DNA of 64,000 nucleotides from Halobacteriovorax sp. (GTDB taxonomy: Bacteria; Bdellovibrionota; Bacteriovoracia; Bacteriovoracales; Bacteriovoracaceae): assembly GCA_002720865.1 (NCBI GenBank), contig PBIO01000031.1:1-64000 (forward strand), read 5' to 3'. Positions within the stretch are counted from its first letter, which is position 1. Every line of letters starts with the position of its first letter. Under the pieces are notes generated by a model. It was not told the DNA's origin. It ran no database searches and saw only the letters and a list, made by a program, of their open reading frames with translations. The position numbers were made by a program, and so were the translations under genes. Positions 28,646-29,443 of the stretch are shown here, in pieces.

Positions 28646-28684
28646 TATAATAAACAAGGATGCAAGTAAGGAGGCTAGGGCATC
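28646..28684 (+). promoter_or_regulatory. Minus-10 box, strong ribosome site and ATC start of pldA
   Basis: A perfect TATAAT lies at 28646-28651 without a clear -35 box. TAAGGAGG (28667-28674) is followed, seven bases later, by ATC at 28682. No ATG, GTG or TTG occurs in this frame between the in-frame stop at 28676 and a TTG at 28901, which lies well inside the conserved protein. Confidence 0.65.
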
Positions 28685-29443
28685 AAATTCATCAGTCTAT
28701 TTTTCTCCATTCTTCTTATTTTTCAGGGAACTTCTTTTGCTCAAGAAGAGCAGGGGCTTAAATTTCTTCAGCTCCACAAATTTAATTATCTTCACCCTTA
28801 CTCCTATACCACTTCGGATAAAGATACAGGAAAAAGAAGCGAGTTAAAGTATCAGTTTAGTATCAGAATCCCTTTTTTTGGTGATGGTAGCCGTTACACT
28901 TTGTTTGCGGCCTATACTCAAAAAAGTCTTTGGCAGATTTATGATAAAGAAGGGTCTCGTCCCTTTAGAGAAACGAATTATAACCCTGAAGTTTTCTATC
29001 GTTTTGGTGGAGCACGAGTATATTCCGATATAGGTTACGCCCATGAGTCAAATGGTAGGGAAGACCCTGAGTCTCGCAGTTGGGACCGGATCTATGCAAA
29101 AGTCGCTTGGGTATCAGATCTTTTAAATTTTGATTTAAATATTTGGCATATTCTCGTGGAGGATCAAGGTAAAGCACAGTTTCCTGAAAAGACTGAGCCT
29201 ATTAAAGATTTTTATGGGCATGGAGACTTTCGAATTACTTTAAAAATGGACTGGCTTTTTATTTCCACTTTAACGAGGTTTAATTGGAGTACTAATAAAG
29301 GCGCCTGGGAAACGGATATTTCTTTTCGTTTAACTGAAAACTTCTTTTTAACTTTTCAGCATTTTCTTGGCTATGGAGACACCCTTAGGGATTATAATAA
29401 TTATACCAATCGATATGGTATCGGTATTATGTTAAATCGTTGA
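28682..29443 (+). CDS. pldA: Outer-membrane phospholipase A (OMPLA), apparent ATC start
   Basis: 253 residues if translation begins at ATC 28682: a signal peptide (about 20 residues, ending TSFA), then HKFNYLHPYSYTTSDKD and the OMPLA beta-barrel. Matches to E. coli PldA include AAYTQKSLWQIYDKE, PFRETNYNPEVF and HESNGREDPESRSWDR. The catalytic His121 and Ser123 are kept, but the third triad residue (Asn156 in E. coli) is Asp135. The enzyme hydrolyses outer-membrane phospholipids and makes lysophospholipids. The 3' end overlaps the convergent gene by 12 bases. Confidence 0.85.
   Translation: MKFISLFFSILLIFQGTSFAQEEQGLKFLQLHKFNYLHPYSYTTSDKDTGKRSELKYQFSIRIPFFGDGSRYTLFAAYTQKSLWQIYDKEGSRPFRETNYNPEVFYRFGGARVYSDIGYAHESNGREDPESRSWDRIYAKVAWVSDLLNFDLNIWHILVEDQGKAQFPEKTEPIKDFYGHGDFRITLKMDWLFISTLTRFNWSTNKGAWETDISFRLTENFFLTFQHFLGYGDTLRDYNNYTNRYGIGIMLNR

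What the first reader, a model, noticed from the sequence alone, without database searches (positions are those of the whole stretch)
28682..29443. Outer-membrane phospholipase A gene with an apparent ATC start codon
The reading frame has TAAGGAGG seven bases before ATC, then a perfect signal peptide and a full OMPLA barrel. An in-frame stop lies at 28676, and the first ATG/GTG/TTG is deep inside the barrel (28901). Non-AUG starts of the ATT/ATC kind are rare and usually regulatory (infC, pcnB). A sequencing error or a frameshift is the alternative.
Basis: partly seen in the sequence, partly recalled or inferred. Interest (0 to 1): 0.7.

Follow-up and report, generated by a model that had tools for sequence, protein, structure and literature searches.

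The report
Phospholipase gene starting at AUC codon
An outer-membrane phospholipase gene in a Halobacteriovorax-like predatory bacterium appears to begin at AUC instead of AUG; two sister species keep AUC or AUU at the same codon, so it is neither a sequencing error nor a dead gene, and at least four other genes of the genus besides the classic case (infC) show the same habit.

Summary
The ORF at 28682-29443 is a complete OMPLA (PF02253, E=3e-55; PDB OMPLA 2e-32). It has TAAGGAGG ending seven bases before ATC, an in-frame TAG at 28676, and no ATG/GTG/TTG before 28901. Error, frameshift and pseudogene are effectively excluded by relatives. A congeneric species (91% protein identity) has GGAGG-7 nt-ATC-AAA at the same codon, although its signal peptide is almost wholly different. 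A second congener (70%) has GGAGG-4 nt-ATT-AAA. The mature protein is under strong purifying selection (dN/dS about 0.015). The genus's infC is an AUU-start gene with a similar initiation site. A comparison of 372 ortholog pairs found three further genes, all secreted proteins or lipoproteins, with conserved AUA, AUU or AUC starts; a histidine kinase keeps AUA in three species. No non-AUH codon gave an independent case. The likely role is to cap translation of a potentially self-damaging phospholipase, probably through IF3 discrimination; this is inferred, not shown. It is a new member of a known kind (infC, pcnB, ccpN). N-terminal proteomics or a start-codon reporter would settle it.

The parts
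28646..28651 (+). TATAAT, likely -10 promoter element (inferred transcription start about 28658-28660, so a 5' leader of only about 22-24 nt)
   Evidence: AGTATAATA conserved in all three congeneric species (alignment); promoter function and transcription start inferred
28667..28674 (+). Shine-Dalgarno sequence TAAGGAGG, 7-nt spacer to ATC
   Evidence: only 5 of 838 surveyed genes have an 8-nt SD at a canonical start
28676..28678 (+). in-frame TAG stop that rules out an upstream in-frame start
28682..28684 (+). ATC initiation codon of pldA
   Evidence: ATC at the same codon in L025 (91% identical protein), ATT in L026/L004 (70%)
28682..28741 (+). signal peptide, fMet-KFISLFFSILLIFQGTSFA, cleaved before QEE (cleavage inferred)
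   Evidence: same 20-residue length in all three species although residues differ
28742..29443 (+). mature outer-membrane phospholipase A (OMPLA/PldA) and TGA stop
   Evidence: Pfam PF02253 E=3.4e-55; PDB 1qd6 OMPLA E=2.2e-32; dN/dS 0.015 against L025
29042..29086 (+). active-site motif HESNG...SRSWD: His 29042-29044, Ser 29048-29050, Asp 29084-29086 (Asn in E. coli OMPLA)
   Evidence: alignments

Best explanation
The gene is an intact outer-membrane phospholipase A whose translation starts at AUC (28682). A strong extended Shine-Dalgarno sequence on a short leader places the 30S subunit on AUC. The ordinary initiator tRNA (anticodon CAU) reads it with a third-base mismatch, so the protein begins fMet-Lys-Phe-Ile and the signal peptide directs it to the periplasm. 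Shown from sequence: the frame, the SD, lack of any other usable start, conservation of AUC/AUC/AUU in three species, purifying selection, an ordinary fMet tRNA. Inferred: the weak codon caps synthesis of an enzyme that can damage the cell's own outer membrane (about 0.75), and because IF3 rejects AUH codons, output would follow free IF3 in the way infC does (about 0.5).
For: anatomy; complete OMPLA with catalytic His and Ser; ATC in L025 and ATT in L026 at the same codon, each after GGAGG; mature dN/dS 0.015; signal peptide pN 0.49, yet ATC AAA identical; only 3 of 11 Ile codons of the mature protein are identical between the two species, so codon choice is otherwise scrambled; infC of the genus starts GGAGG-5 nt-ATT-AAG, close to the pldA site; nearest homologs outside the genus also mostly use weak starts: TTG x3, GTG, ATG; other conserved AUH starts in the genus; standard CAU initiator tRNA; 47 (PMC10158994: in vitro, raising IF3 lowers full-length product from weakly paired initiator codons including AUU/CAU); 15 (PMC13009471: conserved AUU/AUA starts in S. 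aureus have extended SDs and lower initiation).
Against: No expression, ribosome-profiling or N-terminal data exist here. In L026 alternative in-frame ATGs exist (one overlapping the -10 element, one at codon 5), so that species alone would not prove a non-AUG start. The function as a brake, and the link to IF3, rest on analogy. Start codons of the outgroup homologs were assigned by inspection.
Confidence: 0.87

Rival explanations
1. Sequencing or assembly error: the true codon is ATG, or a base is missing and the real start lies upstream in another frame.
For: The source is a 33-contig draft.
Against: Independently assembled genomes of two other species have ATC and ATT at the same codon, with the same spacing to the signal-peptide end. 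Error in all three at one codon is not credible.
Confidence: 0.02
2. Initiation at ATG 28660 (near the transcription start, possibly leaderless) followed by a +1 frameshift into the pldA frame, or ATG 28660 as a regulatory overlapping small ORF.
For: ATG-CAA at this place is also present in L025, with open frames of 33 and 53 codons, and the frame contains AGG-AGG.
Against: A +1 shift at AGG-AGG would run into TAG 28676 in the window. The ATG is absent from the same place and frame in L026. The peptides are not conserved. The GGAGG is ideally spaced for AUC, while ATG 28660 has no usable SD.
Confidence: 0.05
3. Decaying gene: the start was lost and either nothing or only a barrel fragment from TTG 28901 is made.
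For: There is no canonical start in frame.
Against: dN/dS 0.015 over 231 mature codons against L025, an intact frame in three species, and a signal peptide kept as a signal peptide even though its residues changed. A TTG 28901 product would lack signal peptide and first strands.
Confidence: 0.02
4. True AUC start, but with no regulatory meaning: AUG to AUH changes are nearly neutral here because the SD is strong and little enzyme is needed.
For: No genome-wide excess of SD+ATH sites in the single-genome scan. The codon varies between AUC and AUU.
Against: AUH rather than AUG is kept in all three species despite near-saturated synonymous divergence, and relatives outside the genus also avoid AUG, which points to selection for weak initiation.
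Confidence: 0.25

Closest known systems
infC (IF3) with AUU start, E. coli and many other bacteria; also present in this genus
   Same: Conserved AUH start after a strong SD. The genus's infC (GGAGG-5 nt-ATT-AAG) and the pldA of L026 (GGAGG-4 nt-ATT-AAA) have nearly the same initiation site.
   Different: infC is a translation factor that regulates itself through IF3; PldA is an outer-membrane enzyme with no feedback role in initiation.
pcnB with AUU start in E. coli (Binns and Masters 2002, cited in PMC13009471)
   Same: A non-AUG start that limits the level of an enzyme whose excess is harmful.
   Different: Cytoplasmic enzyme. The pcnB-like genes of this genus appear to use ATG, so the trait is on a different gene here.
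ccpN (AUA) and cvfC1 (AUU) of S. aureus (PMC13009471)
   Same: Conserved near-AUG starts with extended SD, shown there to lower initiation.
   Different: Genes of a Gram-positive species found by ribosome profiling; here the evidence is comparative only.
OMPLA / PldA (PF02253; PDB 1qd5/1qd6)
   Same: Same fold family, catalytic His and Ser kept.
   Different: Starts at AUC; Asp in place of the catalytic Asn156 of E. coli.

Membership tests
OMPLA (PldA, PF02253) | profile match over the barrel | tested here: met
   E=3.4e-55, 187.8 bits against cut-off 27; PDB OMPLA 2.2e-32
OMPLA (PldA, PF02253) | catalytic His142, Ser144 and Asn156 (E. coli numbering) | tested here: inconclusive
   His121 and Ser123 present; the position of Asn156 is Asp135, shared with L025, L026, L005, L027; activity not testable
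OMPLA (PldA, PF02253) | N-terminal signal peptide for export | tested here: met
   MK + hydrophobic core + SFA|QEE only if translation starts at ATC; by inspection, no predictor available
Genes with a conserved AUH start codon (infC/pcnB/ccpN type) | no usable ATG/GTG/TTG in frame | tested here: met
   TAG 28676; first canonical codon TTG 28901
Genes with a conserved AUH start codon (infC/pcnB/ccpN type) | AUH codon conserved in related species | tested here: met
   ATC, ATC, ATT in three species of the genus; only three genomes of the genus are held
Genes with a conserved AUH start codon (infC/pcnB/ccpN type) | strong or extended SD at proper spacing | tested here: met
   8 nt, spacer 7 (window); GGAGG in both relatives
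Genes with a conserved AUH start codon (infC/pcnB/ccpN type) | initiation shown at the AUH codon and reduced relative to AUG, IF3-sensitive | not testable with these tools
   needs ribosome profiling, N-terminomics or reporters

The most novel reading that the evidence does not exclude
This genus of predatory bacteria uses AUH initiation as a recurring device: roughly 1% of orthologs, mostly large secreted proteins and lipoproteins plus a sensor kinase and PldA, carry conserved AUA/AUC/AUU starts, so that free IF3 would jointly tune an envelope gene set together with infC.
Probability: 0.3. Interest if true: 0.78.

Novelty: new member of a known kind. Interest (0 to 1): 0.56.

Why it matters
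Conserved AUH starts are documented for only a handful of bacterial genes, and gene finders limited to ATG/GTG/TTG do not call them, so such a caller would truncate this pldA (to TTG 28901) and lose its signal peptide. Finding an outer-membrane enzyme and several other envelope genes with conserved AUH starts in one genus suggests that such starts are under-annotated and can be kept by selection outside infC. Whether IF3 level tunes a gene set becomes directly testable.

Tried and rejected
Sequencing error, frameshift and pseudogene: rejected by relatives and dN/dS. Leaderless ATG 28660 or programmed +1 shift: rejected because TAG 28676 follows AGG-AGG and the ATG is not in the same place in L026. 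An unusual initiator tRNA that would read AUH: the tRNA-fMet found has a normal CAU anticodon; 30 of the 39 tRNA matches were read as loci, and no initiator with GAU was seen. A genome-wide AUH excess in one genome alone: none (6/299 ATH positions against 49/2902 others, p=0.41); only conservation between species separates true cases. Exact TAAGGAGG-N6-ATC pattern in the genome: one other hit, with the spacing chosen one base short of the real 7. pcnB as a second classic case: its homologs here appear to start at ATG. Rfam: no known RNA element in the window. Papers on pldA in Bdellovibrio or on start codons in Halobacteriovorax: none useful.

Full report
Observation. The frame is exactly as described: GGAGG at 28670-28674, extended to TAAGGAGG from 28667, in-frame TAG at 28676-28678, GGC, then ATC at 28682 and an open frame to TGA at 29441-29443. 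The first ATG/GTG/TTG in frame is TTG at 28901. The product matches Phospholipase A1 (PF02253, E=3.4e-55, residues 27-251) and solved OMPLA structures (E=2.2e-32). The neighbours on both sides are on the other strand, so the gene is not translationally coupled to an upstream gene. A TATAAT at 28646-28651 is conserved in the two congeners, which implies a short leader carrying little more than the SD.

Relatives. The genome is a Halobacteriovorax-like member of the Bacteriovoracaceae lineage (titles of L025 and L026; kinship). Two other species of the genus are held. L025 (91% identity) reads AAGGAGGCAGTGGC-ATC-AAA and L026 (70%) reads CCTGGAGGATTT-ATT-AAA at the aligned codon. In all three the codon lies 20 residues before the same signal-peptide end. 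Between the window and L025 the mature protein has pN 0.027 against pS 0.684 (dN/dS about 0.015), whereas the signal peptide has pN 0.49; only 3 of 11 isoleucine codons of the mature part are identical. Against that background the identity of ATC-AAA, and of GGAGGC and GGC before it, is meaningful. Sequencing error and gene decay are therefore excluded in practice. In L026 two in-frame ATGs exist, one overlapping the conserved -10 element (so probably not transcribed) and one at codon 5 with a 16-nt SD distance; the ATT is the better-placed start, but this species alone would not prove the case.

Outside the genus, the nearest homologs start, by inspection, at TTG (L005, L008, L045), GTG (L006) and ATG (L007). 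With the three species of the genus, only one of eight uses ATG. Taking an ATG share of about 0.79 (SD-preceded ATG 339, GTG 44, TTG 44), the binomial tail is about 1e-4, but the sequences are related and the starts hand-assigned, so this is only suggestive of selection for weak initiation.

Is pldA alone? I read 1.44 Mb of the genome and 0.80 Mb of L026's genome (G002). In a single-genome scan of 1.05 Mb, ATH codons are not preceded by an SD more often than other codons, so AUH starts are not common. Comparing 372 ortholog pairs, with the demand that an SD of at least 5 nt and the codon class be kept in both species, upstream of every canonical start, and at least 8 codons from the next one in at least one species, three genes pass and all three are ATH: C31:181705 (1964-aa secreted protein; ATA in three species, with AGCTATAGAGAGGTAGTT identical before it), C31:450494 (801-aa lipoprotein; ATT in three species) and C9:16239 (3307-aa secreted protein; ATC in two). 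The AGG and GAG entries in that list are neighbouring codons of two of the same genes, so no other codon class gives an independent case. In G002 C9:16239 has an ATG two codons later, so that case is weaker. The strict filter misses pldA and infC because canonical codons lie upstream in frame in one or both species; adding them gives 5 of 372. A sixth, the histidine kinase at C17:94773, has ATA in all three species. infC itself begins ATT-AAG after GGAGG in all three.

Mechanism. The initiator tRNA is ordinary (CAU anticodon with the GGG/CCC anticodon stem), so AUH must be read with a third-base mismatch. PMC10158994 reports that in vitro IF3 accepts only Watson-Crick pairs at the first two codon bases, is more tolerant at the third, and lowers full-length product from weakly paired initiator codons as its concentration rises. 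That fits the fact that all cases here are AUH. PMC13009471 shows conserved AUU/AUA starts in S. aureus with extended SDs and reduced initiation. The TAAGGAGG of pldA belongs to a class seen at a canonical start in only 5 of 838 surveyed genes, consistent with a strong SD compensating a weak codon. I therefore infer a gene held at low output and probably sensitive to IF3. A reason to cap PldA is that the enzyme degrades the cell's own outer-membrane phospholipids; this is from general knowledge of OMPLA, not shown here.

Verdict. It is a new member of a known kind, made more interesting by its conservation and by the small set of other AUH-start genes in the same genus. Limits: three genomes of the genus, partial genome coverage, no control genus run through the same comparison, and no protein-level evidence.

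Noticed in passing
29084-29086: The OMPLA active-site Asn (E. coli Asn156, SRSWN) is Asp here (SRSWD) and in L025, L026, L005, L027, which would give a classical Ser-His-Asp triad; gammaproteobacterial and Desulfoluna homologs keep Asn. The second OMPLA of the same genome (C9:147306) keeps SRSWN.
   Followed up: partly
L121:17705 (contig C31:181705, + strand): 1964-aa secreted protein without Pfam match in its first 765 residues, apparent ATA start conserved in three species with 18 identical bases upstream.
   Followed up: yes
L081:14773 (contig C17:94773, - strand): Hybrid histidine kinase with apparent ATA start conserved in three species.
   Followed up: yes
L135:6494 (contig C31:450494, - strand): 801-aa lipoprotein with apparent ATT start conserved in three species and a long n-region before the lipobox; weak match to thermolysin C-terminal domain.
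   Followed up: yes
L069:16239 (contig C9:16239, - strand): 3307-aa secreted protein with ATC in this genome and ATC two codons before an ATG in G002.
   Followed up: partly
28682-28741 compared with L025:1099-1158: Signal peptide diverged almost completely (2 of 18 residues kept after the first two) while the mature protein is over 95% identical, a sharp boundary at the cleavage site.
   Followed up: partly
28660-28761: ATG near the predicted transcription start opens a 33-codon frame overlapping the start of pldA; an overlapping ATG frame of 53 codons exists in L025 but not in L026.
   Followed up: partly
L219 (C16:21040) and L222 (C25:91268): Two equally scoring 635-aa PolyA_pol genes in this genome that neither congener shows; with 4.36% stated contamination and a larger genome than its relatives, these contigs may be foreign.
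   Followed up: no
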